Below the pieces are notes generated by a model. It saw only the letters and a list, made by a program, of their open reading frames with translations, made no database searches and had not been told where the DNA came from. From Pyrenula massariospora (lineage: Eukaryota > Ascomycota > Eurotiomycetes > Pyrenulales > Pyrenulaceae), in contig JAGFMI010000012.1 in the NCBI GenBank assembly GCA_021030905.1, positions 62,001 through 126,000 on the forward strand: a stretch of 64,000 nt of DNA, in the 5' to 3' direction. Each line of letters begins with the position of its first letter. The first letter of the stretch is position 1. The position numbers were made by a program, and so were the translations under genes. Of this stretch, positions 9,721-50,573 are shown in pieces.

Positions 9721-10620
9721 AGACCCGGGCCTGTCATCCAATGAAGGATGCTTGATTTATATTTGAGCTCCCAGCCCTTCTCACTTGAAAAGTAAGCAGT
9801 TCGGAGATGATCTGCTCTAGAGTCTTCGTGACATGGTAGCTGACTTTGGTGACTGCGCTTGGTATGCTTTCTATGTTCTTCTCAGAGCGTCCCTCGCCTT
9901 CGCAGAGCCATGCAGCCTGAATCCTCTCTTAAACGCCTCCCGATCGAAGAGATTCTTGGGTCCTAACATCATACATGACCGCTTCTACCTACTGAATGTG
10001 GTCTCGACGGCGCCGAGAATGTGTCCTGTGGACCGTGTGGACACGGCTGTGAAGATGTATCTTGTGTTAGGGTTCGAATTGACAGAGGCTGCACTTAGTC
10101 ATATCGCCAATCCCAAGTTTCTCGAGATCTTTTTTCTTTAAATGCTTGGTTAGGTCCTAAGGACAGTTGTATTTCCGTGTCCGTCGAGGCACACCGAGAC
10201 AGAGATTGCCGAACCACGGGAAAAACACCAGAGGACGAACAGCAAGCTCTAGATGAGGAAATTCTTCTCAGAGTAGTGGCTTTACTGGTTGTTTCTTATT
10301 TGTATTGGCCTCTTTTTGTCTTGCAGTTCCAGCCTCAACAACTCATTTTGATAGCGTTTCAGTCCTTGAAGGTCTGGATATATCTAGCCATGATCTAGCT
10401 GCGACGCTGCTGTAAAACGCGAATGAACTTCCTTGTCTTGAAAAACGCCGAGCACCCATCTATACAAACTTCCGTCAGACACGGCTTGGAGTCGTCATAG
10501 CGCCATGTAGCGTCAGTTATAGCTAGCGTCGTTGGCGAAACCACTTACCAATTTGGAGCCCTCAAGTTTTGCTTGAAAAAATGGAATAGGCCACAGTAGT
10601 GATGCAGAGATACAGTATCT
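9721..10620. other. Intergenic region without recognised content
   Basis: Nine hundred bases between repeat copy B and the 3' end of the decayed transporter gene. Plus-strand frames at 9833-10141 and 10177-10398 have no motif and unlikely composition. Nothing supported is seen. Confidence 0.5.
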
Positions 10621-12572
10621 TCAGCAGTTTTCTGTGGCTACTCTCGTTGGGTGAAAGAAAGCTACTACTAGAGCAATCGCAATCAAAATCTACGTACGAT
10701 GCGTTAGCGGAACGAGGCAATTATTCATTTCACGTTCATAGTTGCAAAAAACGGGAAAGCAATTTGAAAACTTACTGCACTAATGAAGAATGGCAATCCC
10801 AACCCGATCGTGGAATCCAGCCCAAGGCCAATATTGAAAAGCGCTGCAAATGCTAGCCCTCCAGTTAGACCCGCAACCAGCTCTACGAGAGCAACACCGG
10901 CATATAGCTGGGCTGTGACAGAAGATTTTGCAAATGTCGCCACGATGCCTTGCATGACCTGAGTGATCCCATTTCCTCCGGAGATAATGACCGAGCCTGT
11001 TGAATACCGACGTTAGCCTTTGCCTAAAAGATGAAATGAAAATAAGAATAAGAACAGCAATAATCATAGAGAGCCTACCAGCAATTACTGATGCAGAATC
11101 GGTGCCGAACCCTAATGTAAGATTTTCAGCTACAAGAAACGCAAGGCTCGATCGAGCTACCCAAACATCAACGTATAAAGGCTGGTTTGAGGATTGAGTG
11201 GTGAGAATGCCGGTGAGAAAAGCTAGACCAACAAGTATACCAAGTGACACAGCTGTCTTGACCGAAAGGAGATAGCCAGCTCTGGAAATTGGCCAATCGA
11301 GTAGGTTGGAAACGTACTGGAGGAAGATGCCGTTAGACGAACGGGAAAATGCGTAAATAAAGATCACCGTCGAGCAAATTGTGATCTCTTTGCCGATAGT
11401 AAAAGCTCGGAGGCTCTTTCTCAGTTTTCGGTATCTATCCTGAGGTATGGAAGTGAATTTCACAGGCTGAAAAACGGTAAGTTTAGGCAAGCTCAATGCT
11501 GTCAGGACTTTTGGTAAGTACCTCATTAGATTGGTCAAATGTCTGGCCACTGTTCTCCTCGATATTACTGGAGCGAGATTTTGTTTTTGCTGACGCCGTC
11601 TCAGGCATAAAGAATATGATTGGATACGAGGGTAGTATGATGGGAGTGCTAAACCAGTATGGTAACCAAAGGTCTTTGGATAAGAGCCAGGATCAGATAG
11701 GCACGGCAACGATATCAGTGATGAGAACAAGCGCGCCAATTAGATAGAACACGGTAGTCCTTTACTATTTATTAACATACCTTACAATTAAGAAATAAGC
11801 GAGTACTGACCTCATATCTGGAGGACAAACATCGATCACTAAGGCATTCACAGAAGCACTTAGCACTCGAGCCCTGCCGCCTATGAGCAGAAATACTGGA
11901 GAAGCAAGAACAAGTCGTGTCGGAAATATGTCATAGAAGTAGCCTATAGGTCAATGATTTCTGTTGGAATTCTGCTCCGTTCATCTGGGAACTGACTACA
12001 TACAAATGAAAATGACTCAAAAGTAAGCGAGCACTTGACCAGTCATTCCTAACAATATGACAGGCTTTCGATCGATCTCATCTGTAAGATGGCCATAGAA
12101 GAATGTGAGTACAAGACCTAGCAATAGCATCGGTTAGCTGAGCACGAGCATTCATTACTTAGAGACGGAATTACCAGGGATATTCATGAACAACGATTTC
12201 ATTGCCCTTTATATGCCAATTCGCGTTGAATTTCTTTGATTTTGCATAGCTTTTCTGGGACATAAGCTAGGGGGGCGGTCCGATGACACTTGGATCGTGA
12301 ATGCGATAGTGATCGCGACAAACGGCCATCTCTAGCAAGCGAACTTCGGGCGTGTCTGTAAGCGCACCGCTCAAGTCCGCAACGAGGGAAAATAGACCAG
12401 CGAGGATGATAGCATAGGGGTAGAATTGGTTTTGATGCGAGAGGGTTCCGGAGTGCAGGGATGCCTCTCATGAGGCGGTGCTAGTAGCTTCTTCATCTGA
12501 GCGATCCAAGAGTAGCGGAGTTGTGTCGCCTGGCATGGTCCCTGGGTCTTCGTTAGTCTCCGATGAGCTCAT
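10621..12572 (-). pseudogene. Decayed major facilitator superfamily transporter
   Basis: Read downward from the ATG at 12572, a typical fungal MFS permease can be followed to a TGA at 10621. Recognisable parts are 'DTTPLLLDRSDEEAT', 'VCRDHYRIHDPSVIGP', 'PEKLCKIKEIQREL', 'MNIPG|LVLTFFYGHLTDE' across an intron, 'RKPVILLGMTGQVL', 'FPTRLVLASPVFLLIGG', 'VNALVIDVCPPDMR' and later membrane helices. At least five lesions break the frame: in-phase TGA codons near 12469, 12018 and 11694, a one-base loss in the G run at 12270-12275, and a missing base near 12200. Two of the TGA codons stand where related proteins have Trp or Ser/Trp, and all fit G:C to A:T change. Introns still look normal (11079/10996, 10776/10689), so the gene died after losing selection on its protein. 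The substrate of the ancestor cannot be told. Confidence 0.8.
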
Positions 12573-13012: not shown

Positions 13013-16000
13013 CTACGATTGGCCTTGCCCTTCCAAAAACTCCGCCTTGATATCCCTAAACCATTCATCCATAGTTTGATTGTCACTGTTGACAATTCCC
13101 TCTGGGAGATCCCACCATTTGTCGTCTCCAAACTCCATACAATCATGGTCGGGGGGGCACGTGAGCCCCTCGTCATCATCCGCTCGCTTTCCGTAACAGT
13201 CATGACAAAGAATGCAATCGAAGCAGGTCCGGCAGAAATGCATGGGGCGGTTGAGAACAGATCTCTTGCAGCCTTGGCATTCACGCCACGAGCCCACCAT
13301 CCCGCTATGTAGACGCTCTATTGTAGTTTCCAGGAATATTTTGGTCTATTCGTCCATGTGCGTGCTAATGAACAACAGCGCAAACAAATAGTAATCTAGA
13401 CATCGATACCGCTCGTTGACTGGCTCCATCATCTCGTGTTGTCGGAAAAGATTAACAACATTCATTTCAAGTGGTAACACTGTCTCAACCGACATAGAGC
13501 TTCCATTTGCCATCTTGAAGGCCTGGAGTTTGTCCCAAACGGCGTACCGTGGGTTGATATAGTCTTCCACTCTCCGCCCACGAGCATCTCGGATGAATGG
13601 ATCCGCACCATGTTTCAATAGGGTGGCGAATTGTTTTATCTTGCCATAGCGCGCAGCGTAAAGTATTGGCGTTTCCCCGAGAATCGTCCTTGTTTGGACT
13701 GAAAGGCCTCTGTCGACAAGTATCTCGAGGACAGAGGTATGCCCACCACACACCGCCCATTTATGGATCGCATTGTTTCCGTATCTGTCTATTGTTAGAA
13801 CATTCACGTCTCTACCAAGCAACATATAAAACAAAGTCGGGTCTTCAAGCCCGGCCACCAACCGCATTGCAGACCCCTCAGGTGAAGTGTCCAAATGGGG
13901 GTTGGCTTTGGCTTCGAGAAGCCTTTTGACAGTCGATACATGACCATTCTCGCAGGCCAACATAAGGGCTGTTTCGTTCCAATCTCCTGTCTCATCGATA
14001 TTCATACCTGGGATAGCGGCGCAGTTCTCCAAATAATACCGTACAATAGTGTCCTTTCCATTACAAGCTGCATCATGCCATGGGGTAGAGCCACTTTCAT
14101 CCTTAAGCCACAGATCGAAGTTTAGGCCACTCAGGTGTTCAACCACATTTAGTAAACCTCGGCTAGCGGCAAAGTGCAGGAGCGACTTTCCTCGGTAGCA
14201 TGATCTTGATACGTGCGCTCCTTCTTCGATCAAGAATTCCGCTACCTCTCCACGACCGGATAAAACAGCTAGAACGAGTGGTGTCATATGAGTCATAGCT
14301 GTATCTGGGGTGTATTTCTTTGTCCTAAGGTCTGGAACCGTCACTTCTTTGGGCGCTCCTTGCCTGATGAGGTACTTTACAACATCGAGTTTGCCCTCTG
14401 CTGCAGCTAGACACAATGGAGTAAATTGACTTTTTGTCGACGCGTTAACGTGCCATGATGGACAACATTCGACAATTGCGTTGTGGCCAGCTAAAGAGGC
14501 GGCATGTATTGGGAGTTCTCCATTTTCATCGGGCTCAACGTCTGATTTTTTCCGCATCAATTCTTTGAATATTTCAAGGTGCCCCTTCAGAGCAGCATAA
14601 TACAAAGGTGTTCTTTTCTTATTGTCAAGAGGCACTGGCTCCATGTCAGGCATTGCTCGAAACAATGTCCGAAGAACAGCTAGATTGCCACCGATTGCAG
14701 CGGCGTGGAGCGGAAGCTGCCCGCTATTGTTGGGTTCTATTGTTGGCCGTTTAGTCCAGAGTTCTCTGAAAACTTCATAATTTCCTTCGTATGCCGCGAG
14801 ATAGAGTGGCGTGTTCCCTGAGTCATCTTTGGGTGCTGGATCTAAGTCTGGGTTCTTACGAAAAAGCTCGATGAAATTGGGCAAGCTGCCGTCCAAAGCG
14901 ACCGCATGTAATGGGGTACTGTTGGAATTGGTTCGCGTGGTAGGATCGGCTCCTTGACGAAGGAGCATTTTCACGACATCCACCTTACCAAAATGTGCAG
15001 CCACGTACAGTGGCTGCCATCCTCTAAAAGCATTTCCATCATCGGGACTGGGACCTAAACCAAGCATTCTCTCCAGAATCTTGTCCATCCCTTGATAAGC
15101 AGCCATCTGCGTACATGATATGTTCCCCTTCTTCGGTTGACACCAGTGCGCCTCGGCACGATCCAGAAGCAACTCTGCCACGGCGGGATGATTGTTAAAG
15201 ATTGCGAGCGAGAAAGGCGTTGTACCAGTTGAAGAAAATACTTTTCCGTTTGCACCCTGATCCAGGAGGACTCTCACTAGTTCAATTGAACCATTCATGG
15301 CAGCAAAATGTAATGCCGTTCGTGATCCAGAGTCTTGCTCCATGATTTGGATATGAGGTCGGGCTGAGTTCTTCTGCTTCCTTTTGAGTCGCAGCTGAAA
15401 CTTTTCTAGAAACCTTGATTTGCTTAAGTATCGTTTGTAGACGTCTATGAGATCTACTTCCGCTAAGAACAAGCCTACATTCTGTAAAGAAAATTCGTTT
15501 TCACCGTCGTCATTGTTTTCTTGGCCGACTGATACAGAGAAACACCATCGTGCTAGCTGCATGCAGATGTAAGTCGAATGATCATCGCGAAATACAAAGT
15601 CCAGCATCGGTAAAATCTTGTTGTTCGGGTCTTGGATCCCGCACATCCTGACATGCTCTGTCCAGTACACAGTGGCGTAGAAAACAAACGGTAGGCTCAT
15701 TTTCTCTGCCAAGGAATCATCCGGTGCGTCGCTGGGATGACATGACAAGGATTCCAAGTTGAACCATATGAATAAATAACGTATACAGATCGCAGCCATA
15801 AAAGAGTGACCTTCTTCGCTATTCGTATAATTAAACTCTGATAAGTCGGGCGGTAACCTCCTTCGTAGAAAATCGCCCACTGACTGGTGGGCAAGCCTGA
15901 CAGTGTCGCCTTCCATCTCGATAAGAGATCCACATGACGTCTTGATTCTGTCGGAAAGAGCTTGTGGAAGGTTTCCCTGAAACTCTCCTGGATCAGGAAA

Positions 16001-18607
16001 TGCGGTCACACAAGTAAGTGCATACTGGAGGTCATTGAGGTCGAGATCTACACGAGCAAAGACGAGTATTTTAATAAGATTCACTAAGAGCCTTTTATCT
16101 TCGTCACCAATATTTGCATCGCGCGCAAGTGCCCTCAAAGCAACTTCGTAAGTATTATCAATATCTTCTGGGCGAAATTGGTCGAGGTAAGTTTGATATC
16201 TTTCGAAAGCATTGACATTGAAGGTCCTGTTGCGAAGCTCATTAACGACGGAGATAACCCATTGGAACAATGGGACCGGCTTTGCTTCTAAGCTTTTCCT
16301 TAATTAATCCTTCGATCTTAGGCGAAAGATTCTGAGCTTGAGCCAAAGTGCCGACGTCGATCTCGATCACCTTTTCAACACTCTTTTCTAGATCAGCTCG
16401 TTTGACATCAAGAACGATACCTCCAAATTTTGACGTAACTTGCTCAACCTCCTTAATAGGACGGGTCGTGAACAAGGCCTTTATTCGACCTGCTGTGGGC
16501 TCGCCAACTCCTCTTAGCTTCGAGCACATTTCTTCCAAGAACTCGGCTAGTGTAGAATCTATGTTCCTTTCGCCCTCGCCTTTGGTGTCACCTATGATTT
16601 GGTCTAGCCCATCGATGATACAGACAAGGCTGAATTGGTGCGAAGATTTTAAACGCAAAATTAGGTCCCAGTAGAATCTCATATCAAGATGAGATCCGAG
16701 CAGGAGAGCCTGCTCCTCGGCTCCTTGTAAGACTTTCTCGGGGAATTTGTGGCATAAGTGATACAAAATGTGTTGCATGATGGAGACAGGGCTAGTGTAT
16801 TGTTGCCTAGTCTTGCAGTAGAAAGGGACGATCAGTGTCGTGTCGTTATCATCCAAAGATTTGACGTGCTCAAGAATAAAGCGGGAGAGAACAGTTTTCC
16901 CTTGTCCTTGCCCACATCGAATAAATAAGATGGAATCATTTGGTGATGAACACCACTGTTTGAATATGTCCTTCTCCTTGAGCCACTCACATGTCCCTTC
17001 GTAAGCGGGCCGAACTTCAGGAAAGGATAGGGAATGATCTATCAGGCCAAGGCGATTGATGATGGACTGCGTAGATACAAGGGCATTTGAACTAACAGCT
17101 TGCCCTGATTCAATCCTCCGATAAGCGTGTCTTTCATCAAGAGAACGTTCTCGATTTTCAATGTTTTGCTGACGGGGAAAGATCACAGGTCTAGACGAAC
17201 TCAGAGGTTGCTCAGGTGCTTGGGCACTGTCCAAGTTGTGAAATGCTTTAGCTTTGGCTTGATCCGGATGAAAATTTTGAATGTCGAGTTTTGCTCGCTG
17301 TAGAAGGTTCCGTATCCCAGGGGCGACCTTACAAGCGAAAGCGTGATCCTCTTCATTGCTCCGAAAGCGACACATATGAGAGTGATCTCGATCAATTCTG
17401 CGTCGTGTGACGTTTTTTCTGAAAATACCAAAGGCAGAATCGCTGCTCGTGACCTGTCGAGTATAAGCTTATATAGTTGCCGTCTAAGTTTCGGTTGCAC
17501 CTTGAACTTCAGCCAAAACTTGCGCATGGATTTTCCCTCGTAAAATATAAGCAGCGGAATGTTGTGTTGAGGGCGTAGTCTTAGTTCATCGAACCGGGTA
17601 AGCATTGACCTCATGTCTTTGTCTTCCGGCCGGAGTCTTGAAAGTAATGTCGTATCTCTGCGAAGGAGCGAAGCCACAGGCTTCGAAAAGCCTGCCAGAG
17701 GGCTCCCCTTAAAAGGAGTGCCGAAAAAGACAATGCCTTTTACGAGCGTCTGACCACAGCTCGTGAAAATTTCTCGGAAGTCTTCGGGCGTCTCGCGCCT
17801 CCCGCTATCTTCTTCCAGCGTTTCCAATACAGCCTAGATTCTCAGCCCAAGTCTAAGTAGAGGGGTTTTGGGGCGCTTGCCTTACACACCACAAGACCAC
17901 CAAGGCTGTGGCAGACAAAAAAATTGGACGTTGACATCCCTATGTACTCGTGAGAATGTTGCGCATCACACTTTCGAGGGGAAATGACCAATGGCCGCTG
18001 AGCTTTGATGTTGTTGAGAAGCTCCTCCGCAATCAGACCGATTTTTTGTTTGTCCTCGCTGCCCCTGTTCCATGCAGATTGGTAGCCAAAAGTCGAATAA
18101 CGGCCAAAATATCTGTGCATCTGATGATCTTGGGGCAACAGGTCGCGACACCACATCAATCCAGGACCGTCAGGTTTTTCATGCGCGCGAAATGTATTGA
18201 ATGCGTGCCCACCAAAGCCATGAACAAAGTAAAAGCTTCATAGCCACCTATTAGCAGAAGGTTTGGGAGCACGTTCCGAACGAAGCTCACTCAAATGAAG
18301 GATCTTTATCAAGCTCCGCCAGCACCGTCATTCCGTCCCAATCGCTCAAAATTTGGAGGTGAGAGACACTTCCTCGACTGTCGATGAGCGGCGCATCCGT
18401 GAGCTTCCCCAGATTTGACCTCCTGTCATGGTCGTTTTGACCGAGACGAAGCGCTACGGTCGTGCTTTGCGAGCCAGGATTTGGCCCTGAGACAAGGCTC
18501 GAAACTATCGGTTTGGAAGCAGGTAGCACCTTCTCGACATGATTTCGGATGTCTACACGGTTGACGTTCTCTCCAAGACCCAGGACGGAGACGGTCACAT
18601 ATTCCAT
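13013..18607 (-). CDS. SesB-like hydrolase / NACHT / ankyrin / ZZ-like NLR protein, with two compensating frame shifts
   Basis: Exons downward: 18607-18291, 18235-17881, 17833-13410, 13304-13013; introns of 55, 47 and 105 bp, the second with a GC-AG pair (AAG|GCAAGC). Total 5388 nt, about 1795 aa. Parts in order: an alpha/beta hydrolase of the SesB type ('FVHGFGGHAFNTF', nucleophile 'CHSLGGLVVCK', 'GIVFFGTPFKGS', catalytic 'DRDHSHM'); a NACHT NTPase with P-loop 'GQGQGKT' (16913-16893) and Walker B 'LVCIIDGLDQI'; about 17 ankyrin repeats (15310-13540); and a Cys/His-rich end ('CQGCKR..FCRTCFDCILCHDCYGKR') like a ZZ finger. In fungi this architecture belongs to NLR-like receptors tied to heterokaryon incompatibility and defence. 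The block from about 17396 to 16258 (hydrolase end plus NACHT) lies one frame away; a base seems lost at the first edge and gained at the second, restoring the frame. Real inactivation and sequence error are both possible. An upstream Met at 18703 would add 32 hydrophobic residues. Confidence 0.82.
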
Positions 18608-46149: not shown

Positions 46150-46166
46150 AAAAAAAGAAAGCAAAA
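46150..46166 (-). terminator. RNA polymerase III terminator of 5S rRNA
   Basis: Just past the 5S 3' end, the transcribed strand's copy carries T-rich runs, first a run of five T overlapping the gene end and then a run of seven T at 46156-46150. Runs of four or more T stop RNA polymerase III. Confidence 0.6.
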
Positions 46167-46285
46167 ACATACAACAGCAGGTATTCGCTGGTGGTCACCC
46201 ACCCAACTACTAACCTGCCGGCGTGTGGCTTAAGTACGGCTGAGCGAACGGGAAGCCCTGTTCTCCACACCCTATGGTCGTATGT
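46167..46285 (-). rRNA. 5S ribosomal RNA
   Basis: Read on the minus strand, the 119-nt gene begins ACATACGACCATAGGGTGTG and ends with CTGCTGTTGTATGT. The two ends pair (ACATACGAC with GTTGTATGT), as in helix I. Between them lie the conserved blocks CCGTTCGCTCAGCCGTACTT, AAGCCACACGCCGG, GTTAGTAGTTGGGTGGGTGA and CCACCAGCGAATA. This is close to the 5S RNA of Neurospora and other filamentous ascomycetes, where single 5S genes are scattered among protein genes rather than kept in the rDNA repeat. The internal A box, intermediate element and C box for TFIIIA/TFIIIC fall in the conserved middle. The sequence looks intact. Confidence 0.95.
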
Positions 46286-47192: not shown

Positions 47193-50100
47193 ATGACACC
47201 GGAAAACCGCTCGTTGAGTGAGTCTGAGAACCAAAACGCCATCTCGTGGATCTGACATAGATTTTATAGCATCATTGCCGTCCATGGCCTCAATCCCCAC
47301 CTCAAAGATGATGACTTCCATGCCTTTGAGACCTGGTCCAGTCCGAAAGGCGGAAAAGGCGACCTTTGGCTGAGAGACCAGTTGGCGATCTCAATGCCCA
47401 ATGCTCGAATTTTCATAGCTGTCTATGACAGTCAACCAATCTTTGGCAACAAGGACCGCTTCTTTCGTCAGGCCAATACATTTCTCGAAGAAATTCTAAT
47501 AAAAAGAGATGAAATTGAAGTGAGATGGTTCAAAGAAACGGACAAGCCGAGAAGCTAAAAATTATCAGGACATCAAGCGCCCAATTGTACTATTGGCATA
47601 TAGCCTGGGAGGCATCCTTGTGAAACAGGTATTCATTCTCCTCCTCCTATTGCTTTTTACCTTACTAAGACAGATACTAAGGCTTTGGTCAATGCACACA
47701 ATAACCAACGGTTCTCTTCCGTAAAAGAAGCAGTGTAAGACGTCCCCGAGCGTGTTTAGGGACATGTGATCATTAACGGATTAGACACGGCTTGATATTC
47801 TTTGGCGTTCCGCACGCGGGAGGAGATCACGCAGCAGTACAGCTCGGGAACCTAGCGACTCGGATCGCTAATCAAATCCTCCCAAATGCCAAGAGAGACA
47901 TCATTGAGACTCTAAAGGATGGATCGATGTACGCGGACATTCTCAAAGAGATGTTTCGACACCAACTTGAACAATACGAGATTGTCTCGTTCTATGAGCG
48001 ACAAGAGAAGACAAGTCGGGTATATCTAGCTCCCGAACCAAACCCTTCCATGAGGTTAACCAAGATCTAGATCATTGTACCTTACGAAAGCGCAACACTT
48101 GGTCTCGCCGGGCATCGCGAGAACCAGGTCGGCCTCAATGCGGACCATATCAATATGTGTTGTTTCGACAGCTCCAAGCAACATGACAAGGACACATATG
48201 AGCTTGTCGAGTTCAACGTTAGAAATATATGCAAGAGCGCTATCCGAGCTAGAAACAGAGGTGAGTTGTTGGACACTCAAATTGGAACCGATGCAGGGCT
48301 ACAAGAACGCTTTGCGAGACTCGCCGAAGCCTAAACAATGGTGGCGTGCAGCCGGTCGCTATATAGCTTCTACAGCTTTTCGATATGCATCTAATAGACC
48401 AGAATATCAATTTTAAAATTTCGTACTACTGTCTTCGTTGTGTATTCTTATTACTCATGCGTACTTTTTACTTAGGGTTGCATACAATATCCCGCTCCAC
48501 GACCGATTTTCAAAATTGCGAACAGTCCTACAGATTCGGAATGGCGCTCGAAGATCACTTGAGCCCTGATCGAAACTGGCTTAGTTTTCGGCGTGGGGAT
48601 CTTATAGAAGACATCAAAGTCTTCACGCACGAGGGTAGTCATAAGGTAGAAGGGAGAATAAGAAGCTCTTGCGGTCAATTTGTACGTTCACATTTCCGAA
48701 TCTAACCAATCCCTGGCAGAAGTTGACAACGTCGATTGTGAAGCCCGAGAAAAGCGTCCTATGCATCACCAAGCGTAAGAACGAAGAAATCCTTGAGCAA
48801 TTCTCAAGCCAAGATTTGTTTGACAAAGCCGTGACCGAACACGACCTTGAATTTGCTGACAAGTTGTTCGGTGATCGCATCGACGACCCATTGAAGCCAC
48901 AATTGACTACTACCGTCACTAGTCTTGGAACAGCCTATGTGGACAGGTACGGTCGGCTCCATGATCAAGCACTTCATTTCGCAGTCATTGCGGCCGACCA
49001 AGAGATGATGCGGTTCCTGGTAGAAGGACATTTCATTTCGGTGAATAAGAGAACTGACTTTCCAGCGATATCTTCTCGCCGCCCAGAAGATGATTGGTCT
49101 AGATGGGACTCGTATGTTGAGACAAGATCTGGTACGCCACTGACGGCCGCCGTCAATCGATACGTCCGCAGCAAGCATTTCAGAAATGAAGTCGATCAGA
49201 GAGCTGAGGTTGTCATCTGGCGAAGGATGATCCGTGAACTGGTCCATCTGGGAGCCAATTGGTCGACTTTTGCCGACGGGCAAAATCTTCTCGGACCACA
49301 ATCAGTACTCCGTGCTGACGGCCCTTCCGTGTTGTCGCGCGCGATCGATTATAATGACCGTGCTATCTACGATCTGGTTCTCTTCAAAGCCGATCCACCG
49401 CTCGAATTTAGATGGCTTCCCTGGCCGCCATTTTTTGAGCCGGAGCGTTGGTGGGCAACTCATTCAACCATCATACGGCCTCTTGATTCGGAGGAGGCTG
49501 GAAGAGTGATTGAGCTCTTAAAGCGACATCCCAAATTGGCCGATGCCACTGGCGAGCAGTCGTTGAGAGCTGCGGCTAACAATCTCCTTTGGGATAATTT
49601 GAATGATCTAGACCTGTCATCTGAACGGATCAATACCCTCTTTGAACGTCTACTCGCGCAGTTAGATGAGCGGTCTTCGCAGCAAGCCAAAGAAGATTTC
49701 GACTTGGTGGTGGAGCAACTAGGGAAAATCCTTATGGCTCAGCCCGATGTTAAGCTGTGGGCCGAGCGAAAAGGTCATCCATCCATTTTACATTACTGTG
49801 TCGCCGAAGACTTACACGACGTTCTGCAAACTTTTCTGACTGGAATGAAGGACAGAGTAGTCCTTCCACTGGTAAACCTCGCATTTGGAGACGGCGAAAC
49901 TCTCCTGGACAAAGCTGCGGCGAATGGTAACAACGAAATGGTTGACTTGCTGAAGAGCTACAATGCTGTTCCCTCGCCGCGTCCTTCAAGAAGAAGCTTC
50001 AACTCATCGCTCACGGTGGGATTTCTGAGGCCAACAAAGGCTAGTACGTCCTCAATGACCAGAGCTTCTTCACCGCTGCAACGGATAAGCTCTCAGAAAA

Positions 50101-50573
50101 GCACACCTTTTTCGTCAAACACCTCCGAACAATCGTATGCGGCACATTCGGCAAAGCCATCTCCGAGAAGCCACGCGCCAGTCGGCCAGAGACCGAGACC
50201 CCCAGAAGAATCCCGCGCTTACAAGAACGCCCTCGAGGCCACGACTGCTGTGACATATGCTCAGGACAAGCTGGTCGACGTTTCGCAATACTCCGATTCG
50301 ACAACTCAAGCTGATAGCCAAAACCACGCGCCACCCGCGCTCAAGCCGTCGTATTCGGAGGGTGTTCCCGAGCTACTTTCTCGAAGCTCCTACGCGGAAG
50401 TTGTCAAGCAAAATCTCGACCCTGCTAAGGCTGTGCCGTCTAAGATGACTCTCAGGAGCGTATCTCGTGCGGCCGGAAAGGAAGGAAAAGCAGAAGCCGA
50501 ACCCTGCGGTGGCAGGAGGAAAGGAGCTGATAAGCTTTCCTCAACGAGTAACGGCGTGAGAAGAAGGTCATAA
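47193..50573 (+). CDS. SesB-like hydrolase fused to SH3-like segment and degenerate ankyrin repeats
   Basis: Proposed exons: 47193-47221, 47261-47519, 47569-47628, 47682-47734, 47785-48019, 48071-48260, 48476-48681, 48720-50573; 2886 nt, 961 aa, in frame. Residues 1-275 are an alpha/beta hydrolase: 'IIAVHGLNPHLKDDDFHAFE', nucleophile elbow 'LLAYSLGGILVKQ', 'HGLIFFGVPHAGGDHA', 'LNADHINMCCF' with the His. Residues about 285-344 resemble an SH3 fold ('ALEDHLSPDRNWLSFRRGDL', 'VEGRIRSSCGQF'). Then come weak ankyrin repeats ('QALHFAVIAADQEMMRFLVE', 'GETLLDKAAANGNNEMVDLL') and a Ser/Pro-rich, basic tail. No NACHT or NB-ARC is present. Two introns are delicate: a 215-bp one (48261-48475), inside which an earlier acceptor would add 'GLQERFARLAEA' and stop, and a 38-bp one (48682-48719). 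So a hydrolase-only product is also possible, and a separate downstream gene cannot be ruled out. Confidence 0.72.

What the first reader, a model, noticed from the sequence alone, without database searches (positions are those of the whole stretch)
13013..18607. NLR-type SesB-NACHT-ankyrin-ZZ gene whose NACHT block sits in a shifted frame between two compensating indels
Seen: the hydrolase start (to about 17396) and the ankyrin part (from about 16258) share one frame, while the roughly 1.1-kb NACHT block between them is open in another. At the first edge 'DAEL' must give way to 'DRDHSHM' with one base missing; at the second 'KAGPI' must give way to 'FQWVISVV' with one extra base. Net change is zero, and no GT-AG intron fits either edge in phase. 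Known: such receptors mutate fast and null alleles are common at incompatibility loci. Inference: either an allele that lost its ATPase, an alternative splice I cannot see, or two base-calling errors.
Basis: partly seen in the sequence, partly recalled or inferred. Interest (0 to 1): 0.8.

Follow-up and report, generated by a model that had tools for sequence, protein, structure and literature searches.

The report
Broken fungal immune-receptor gene, partly explained
A fungal self/non-self receptor gene looked broken in two places; the first is most likely an ordinary small intron, while the second is a real frame break that cuts the sensor half off, so this is most likely a recently disrupted copy of a known kind of gene.

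Summary
The gene is a fungal NLR on the minus strand (18607 to 13013): SesB-like hydrolase, NACHT, ankyrin repeats, zinc-finger-like end. Edge 1 (17396) is misplaced: conserved hydrolase residues already lie in the NACHT frame from about 17453, and an in-phase intron (best 17500-17454, 47 nt) ranks first of 189 candidate joins against a profile of the genome's own hydrolases. Edge 2 is real: the frame changes within 16279-16268, where paralogs leave no room for an intron. A relative of the same layout (contig 11) keeps NACHT to zinc finger in one 1581-codon frame. A broken gene lies next door; no RIP signature. Best reading: a recently disrupted (null) NLR copy. Assembly error is not excluded without reads. 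Pseudogenised NLR/het alleles are known.

The parts
18291..18607 (-). exon 1, from the ATG at 18607 that the finding takes as start (an earlier in-frame ATG exists; not tested)
   Evidence: open frame; gene model open to 16242
18236..18290 (-). intron 1, 55 nt, GTGAGC..AAG, CTAAT 15 nt before the end
   Evidence: the only in-phase GT-AG join of 30-120 nt found there; leads into VHGFGGHAFNTF
17881..18235 (-). exon 2, hydrolase with nucleophile elbow HSLGG
   Evidence: profile of own hydrolase paralogs, E 2.1e-16
17834..17880 (-). intron 2, 47 nt, GC-AG (GCAAGC..TAG)
   Evidence: sequence; phase and product checked; not ranked against other joins by profile
17501..17833 (-). exon 3, hydrolase to the F-Y-E region (frame A)
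   Evidence: profile E 6e-07
Close alternative 17523-17468, 56 nt GC-AG (GCAAGT..AAG)
   Evidence: 1st (50.6 bits) and 2nd (48.9) of 189 in-phase joins
16280..17453 (-). exon 4 (frame B): end of the hydrolase (DHSHMCRF) and the NACHT ATPase
   Evidence: NPHP3_N E 2.4e-22, 80.3 bits against cut-off 24.8; hydrolase motif
16268..16279 (-). frame break between NACHT and winged-helix region: the only firm lesion
   Evidence: profile positions 230 and 234 abut in two frames; C11 paralog matches -3 to 16293 and -1 from 16303
13349..16267 (-). frame A: winged-helix region (by position) and ankyrin repeats
   Evidence: Ank_2 E 1e-83 on 16258-13349; own profile 68.6 bits for the first part
13346..13348 (-). 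in-frame TAG
   Evidence: 44 in-phase joins over it (40-199 nt), none with a GTRNG or GCRAG donor
13016..13345 (-). zinc-finger-like C-terminal piece, stop at 13015-13013
   Evidence: matches the C-terminus of the C11 paralog, E 2e-08 pairwise, 4e-4 genome-wide; no Pfam hit
10620..12570 (-). context: neighbouring membrane-transporter-like gene (name by eye; extent approximate), broken
   Evidence: consecutive parts of open paralog ORFs (L055) lie in several frames with an in-frame stop; no Pfam family for its pieces

Best explanation
A SesB-like hydrolase / NACHT / ankyrin / zinc-finger-like NLR gene that was recently disrupted. Shown: with three small introns (the third ranked best by profile, none seen in transcripts) one frame runs from ATG 18607 through hydrolase and NACHT; the frame then breaks within 16279-16268 and the reading ends at 16242 after 738 residues. 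Shown: the downstream half is still open for about 970 codons in another frame, then an in-frame TAG, then the zinc-finger-like end. Inferred: the allele makes at most a hydrolase-NACHT protein without winged helix and sensor, or nothing if the message is degraded, and so behaves as a null allele of an incompatibility or defence receptor. How an intact relative would work (sensor repeats hold the ATPase off; ligand lets it oligomerise and switch on the hydrolase) is general NLR knowledge, recalled and not tested here.
For: Gene model open to 16242. NACHT and Ank by Pfam. Same-layout relative on contig 11 with 1581 codons in one frame over the break and the stop positions. 15 of 19 distinct paralog loci pass the same junction in one frame and 3 of 19 by an intron; 1 of 19 (L024) is unexplained. 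The break is not in a homopolymer, and the five homopolymers of 6 or more in the gene lie elsewhere. A neighbouring gene is broken too. Recency: about 207 nonsense changes expected per substitution per site over 1810 codons, so one stop fits d near 0.005. No second copy of this DNA was found in the genome.
Against: No reads, transcripts or sister strains are held. The TAG could still lie in a weak intron: its linker does not align to C11 better than shuffles (465 of 500 as good). The 985-codon sensor ORF without an inner stop also fits a gene under selection and an assembly error at the break. At edge 1 the proposed intron keeps coding-like codon bias in frame A (+1.6 over 15 codons, +2.5 over 18 for the alternative), and one paralog (L020) has a similarly long loop there without an intron, so a second lesion near 17460 is not excluded.
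Confidence: 0.59

Rival explanations
1. Assembly or base-calling errors at the break, and perhaps at the TAG; the real gene is intact.
For: Only one firm lesion in about 5.6 kb; both long ORFs keep coding bias; no read data.
Against: Break not in a homopolymer; a stop needs a substitution-type error; the neighbour gene is broken as well. In 246,892 bases of held sequence (loci partly overlapping) 22 overlapping coding ORF pairs were found and 4 lacked a consensus-like intron: L022 (later explained by an intron), L024 (another NLR), L053 (weak coding) and this break.
Confidence: 0.22
2. Constitutive short form: the break fixes a sensor-less hydrolase-NACHT protein that is used.
For: The 738-residue frame is clean. 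In three paralogs an intron lies exactly at this junction, and retaining it would end the protein at once (L018, L023) or 14 residues on (L022).
Against: No expression data; the sensor half still looks coding and nearly stop-free, which argues for a very recent event; the intron-bearing paralogs form a group without the window gene (85/84 support, window's place unsure).
Confidence: 0.08
3. Full-length protein is made after all, by an unseen splice or by ribosomal frameshifting at the junction, with readthrough or splicing at the TAG.
For: Both frames keep coding bias; edge 1 suggests that weak-looking introns exist in this gene.
Against: At edge 2 the pieces abut with no profile positions to spare, and none of 104 joins reaches the score of the pieces apart; no known +1 shift site was recognised by eye (motifs recalled, no search run).
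Confidence: 0.06
4. Two frame lesions, as the reader held (the first not at 17396 but upstream, about 17520-17453), so that the product ends at 17201 and the ATPase is lost too.
For: Frames A and B are as described; frame A keeps coding-like bias through the proposed intron; paralog L020 has a long loop there in one frame.
Against: In-phase joins score above the two pieces apart (14 of 189), while none does at edge 2; three of eight paralogs seen on both sides (L034, L040, L045) also have the two sides in different frames, L040 with a consensus-like intron candidate.
Confidence: 0.05

Closest known systems
Fungal NLRs with SesB-like N-terminus, NACHT and ankyrin repeats (PMC4986451, PMC12258605; passages seen)
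   Same: Domain order; SesB-like and ankyrin are among the commonest N- and C-terminal parts there; C-terminal zinc fingers are reported in Sordariales NLRs (PMC12258605).
   Different: This copy is interrupted; Pfam does not recognise its hydrolase or its zinc-finger-like end.
Pseudogenised or null alleles of fungal NLR and incompatibility genes: nwdp genes and null het-e (e4) in Podospora (PMC12222747), het-Vb in Neurospora (PMC9262711); passages seen
   Same: Stop codons or loss in some genomes, intact copies in other strains.
Own-genome paralog on contig 11 (L045)
   Same: Hydrolase pieces upstream, NACHT, ankyrin, ZZ-like end.
   Different: About 25% identical; NACHT to ZZ-like end in one open frame.

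Membership tests
Fungal NLR | NACHT/NB ATPase | tested here: met
   NPHP3_N 80.3 bits, cut-off 24.8; Pfam NACHT 23.8, below its cut-off 26.7
Fungal NLR | C-terminal repeats | tested here: met
   Ankyrin families, E down to 1e-83, but out of frame with the NACHT in this assembly
SesB-like N-terminus | alpha/beta-hydrolase domain | tested here: inconclusive
   No Pfam hydrolase model for the pieces or the spliced model; own-paralog profile matches with HSLGG and DH motifs; one paralog in that profile, L039, is Abhydrolase_6/DUF676 above cut-off. No SesB model was on hand
ZZ zinc finger | Pfam ZZ match | tested here: not met
   0 Pfam families at E up to 10; the homologous C11 end matches ZZ at 17.8 bits, below cut-off 21.4
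Pseudogene / disrupted allele | frame broken where relatives are open, no splice to bridge it | tested here: met
Pseudogene / disrupted allele | lesions present in the organism's DNA and no functional product | not testable with these tools
   no reads, RNA or strains
RIP-mutated gene | raised TpA/ApT and composite RIP index | tested here: not met
   composite index -0.70 for the gene, negative in all 32 bins of 2 kb

The most novel reading that the evidence does not exclude
The break has fixed what some relatives could make by intron retention: a sensor-less hydrolase-NACHT short form. Three paralogs carry an intron that splits the very codon before F-x-W at this junction, and keeping it ends their protein at or soon after the NACHT. 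Here the same short form would be the only product, acting as a helper or a brake in the receptor network.
Probability: 0.07. Interest if true: 0.6.

Novelty: new member of a known kind. Interest (0 to 1): 0.3.

Why it matters
Mostly a correction: a short intron in a variable hydrolase tail can pass for a lesion, and the surviving product is then effector plus ATPase, not an ATPase-less receptor. One large NLR survey says that frameshifted candidates were removed (PMC12258605, passage), so how often the sensor half is the part lost may be undercounted; this locus, with L024, is a case to count.

Tried and rejected
Edge 1 as a lesion at 17396: first accepted by me (note), because frame A near 17430 (LILDRSRAAI) looks like the conserved strand; dropped when the profile placed the strand in frame B. 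A 56-nt intron 17453-17398 was considered and rejected: it would remove that strand and scores 38.1, below the pieces apart. Note that in-phase joins are plentiful (189 here) and the top four lie within 2.2 bits, so the exact intron ends are not settled.

Loss of an intron at the NACHT junction, leaving a scar: considered because three paralogs have an intron there; disfavoured, since those three group apart from the window gene (window's place unsure) and the same-layout paralog has no intron there.

RIP: no signature. Recent duplication: only one copy of the DNA found. Solved structures: none for the hydrolase at E up to 1. Plasmid collection: no match for the NACHT. Literature on imprecise intron loss and on incompatibility nulls: listings only.

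Neighbour gene: called transporter-like by eye; Pfam gave no family for its four pieces and only a sub-threshold membrane-protein match for the paralog L055.

Background sample: wanted 400 kb, got 40 kb, so the rate of unexplained frame changes is rough.
Full report
What was claimed.

What is there. On the minus strand, stop-to-stop frames are: A 17833-17201, B 17468-16242, A 16303-13346, and A again 13345-13013 after a TAG. Codon bias trained on other ORFs follows A, B, A in most bins; over exon 4 frame B scores +48.1 and over the sensor part frame A +100.0, with the other frames negative.

Edge 1 is most likely an intron. I built a profile from five hydrolase ORFs of the same genome, two of them partial. 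It matches exon 2 (E 2.1e-16), exon 3 in frame A up to the F-Y-E region (E 6e-07), and the start of frame B (E 0.0069), where V-T-S-S-D-S-A...D-R-D-H-S-H-M-C-R-F lies within one residue of the spacing in L039, L044 and L041 (compared by eye). Thus the last hydrolase strand is in frame B and the frame must change before about 17453, not at 17396. I listed all in-phase GT-AG and GC-AG joins of frame A to frame B of 30-250 nt, 189 in all, and scored each against the profile. The best is 17500-17454 (47 nt, GTGCAA..CGACAG; 50.6 bits); the second is 17523-17468 (56 nt, GC-AG with donor GCAAGT; 48.9 bits); the third and fourth reach 48.7 and 48.4. The pieces alone score 25.5 and 14.2, and 14 of 189 joins exceed their sum. 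In three of eight paralogs seen on both sides of this place (L034, L040, L045) the two sides also lie in different frames, in L040 with a consensus-like intron candidate. Against: in-phase joins are plentiful; the proposed intron has coding-like bias in frame A (+1.6 over 15 codons; +2.5 over 18 for the alternative); and paralog L020 carries a long loop there in one frame. So a second lesion near 17460 is not excluded. Intron 2 of this gene is best read as GC-AG.

Edge 2 is a real break. A NACHT-to-winged-helix profile of 21 sequences (the C11 paralog plus 20 pieces of 17 other loci) matches frame B up to profile position 230 (109.1 bits) and frame A from position 223, with its F-Q-W at 234-236 (68.6 bits). 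The two matches abut, so no intron fits between them. Of 104 in-phase joins of 30-250 nt the best scores 172.1 (31 nt, GC donor) and the best of at least 40 nt 167.4; none reaches the 177.7 of the two pieces apart. The C11 paralog alone shows the same: its residues 63-292 match frame -3 to 16293 and 285-1239 match frame -1 from 16303. The break lies within 16279-16268, not in a homopolymer.

How paralogs pass this junction. Of 20 locus entries examined (19 distinct; L013 and L032 are one gene; most of them also fed the profile), 15 distinct loci pass it in one frame; L018, L022 and L023 have an intron that splits the codon before F-x-W; L024 changes frame with about 30 profile positions missing and no intron join that scores as well as the pieces apart. 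So an unexplained frame change in this part of an NLR occurs in 1 of 19 paralogs besides the window gene.

The TAG. The contig 11 paralog runs from NACHT through ankyrin repeats to a ZZ-like end in one frame of 1581 codons, and a tblastn match of it crosses the TAG (15352-13028). Of 44 in-phase joins (40-199 nt) that would remove the TAG, none has a GTRNG or GCRAG donor, and all score below the unspliced alignment (134 against at most 126). But the linker around the TAG does not align to the paralog better than shuffles (465 of 500 as good), so an intron there is unlikely rather than excluded.

What the gene encodes as assembled. ATG at 18607, three introns, 738 residues (735 with the alternative intron 3), ending at 16242: hydrolase region, then NACHT (NPHP3_N). 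Winged-helix region, ankyrin repeats and zinc-finger-like end are cut off. If intron 3 is not used, the product ends at 17201 and the NACHT is lost too. Pfam recognises neither the hydrolase nor the zinc-finger-like end; both rest on comparison with paralogs.

Real or artefact. For real: a break outside homopolymers, a second lesion of another type (the TAG, if it is one), and a broken neighbour: the gene at about 12.6-10.6 kb matches open ORFs of a paralog (L055) in pieces that switch among three frames, with an in-frame stop (one of those switches may be an intron). Its transporter nature is by eye; Pfam named neither its pieces nor L055 above cut-off. Against: no reads are held, and only one lesion is firm. 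In 246,892 bases of held sequence (some loci overlap; ten overlapping loci were left out beforehand) 22 overlapping coding ORF pairs were found; 4 lacked a consensus-like intron, namely L022 (explained later by an intron with donor GTCAGT), L024, L053 (weak coding) and this break; edge 1 had only a poor donor in that scan. If the TAG is a decay mutation, the expected 207 nonsense changes per substitution per site put the neutral time since loss near 0.005 substitutions per site. RIP is not indicated.

Compared with the literature. SesB-like/NACHT/ankyrin NLRs are a common fungal kind (PMC4986451, PMC12258605, passages). C-terminal zinc fingers are reported (PMC12258605, passages). Pseudogenised or null NLR alleles are reported in Podospora (PMC12222747, passages) and a pseudogenised incompatibility gene in Neurospora (PMC9262711, passages). 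The last paper also warns that annotation places unsupported introns to avoid stop codons; here the support for intron 3 is the paralog profile, and at edge 2 the same test gives no intron. Passages of PMC9815663 were seen and added nothing specific.

Verdict. A real observation, half of it most likely an intron, half a genuine frame break with a likely second lesion; most likely a recently disrupted NLR copy that keeps effector and ATPase and has lost the sensor. Ordinary in kind, modest in interest.

Noticed in passing
window about 10620-12570 (-): Gene beside the NLR, transporter-like by eye, broken: parts of open paralog ORFs (L055) fall in several frames, with at least one in-frame stop.
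   Followed up: partly
window 47256-50573 (+): A second SesB-like hydrolase in pieces (47256-48331, four profile hits in order) followed by a 642-codon ORF with ankyrin matches and no NACHT match.
   Followed up: partly
L024 (C6:877783-881214): Another NACHT gene with a frame change and about 30 profile positions missing between ATPase and winged-helix region; no intron join fits as well as the pieces apart.
   Followed up: partly
L018, L022, L023: Three NLR paralogs carry an intron that splits the codon before the F-x-W motif after NACHT; L022 with an unusual GTCAGT donor. Retention would truncate the protein at or soon after NACHT.
   Followed up: partly
window 17834-17880: Intron 2 of the NLR is best read as a GC-AG intron of 47 nt.
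   Followed up: partly
window 46166-46285 (-): 5S rRNA gene (Rfam, 82.5 bits) about 1 kb from the second hydrolase gene.
   Followed up: no
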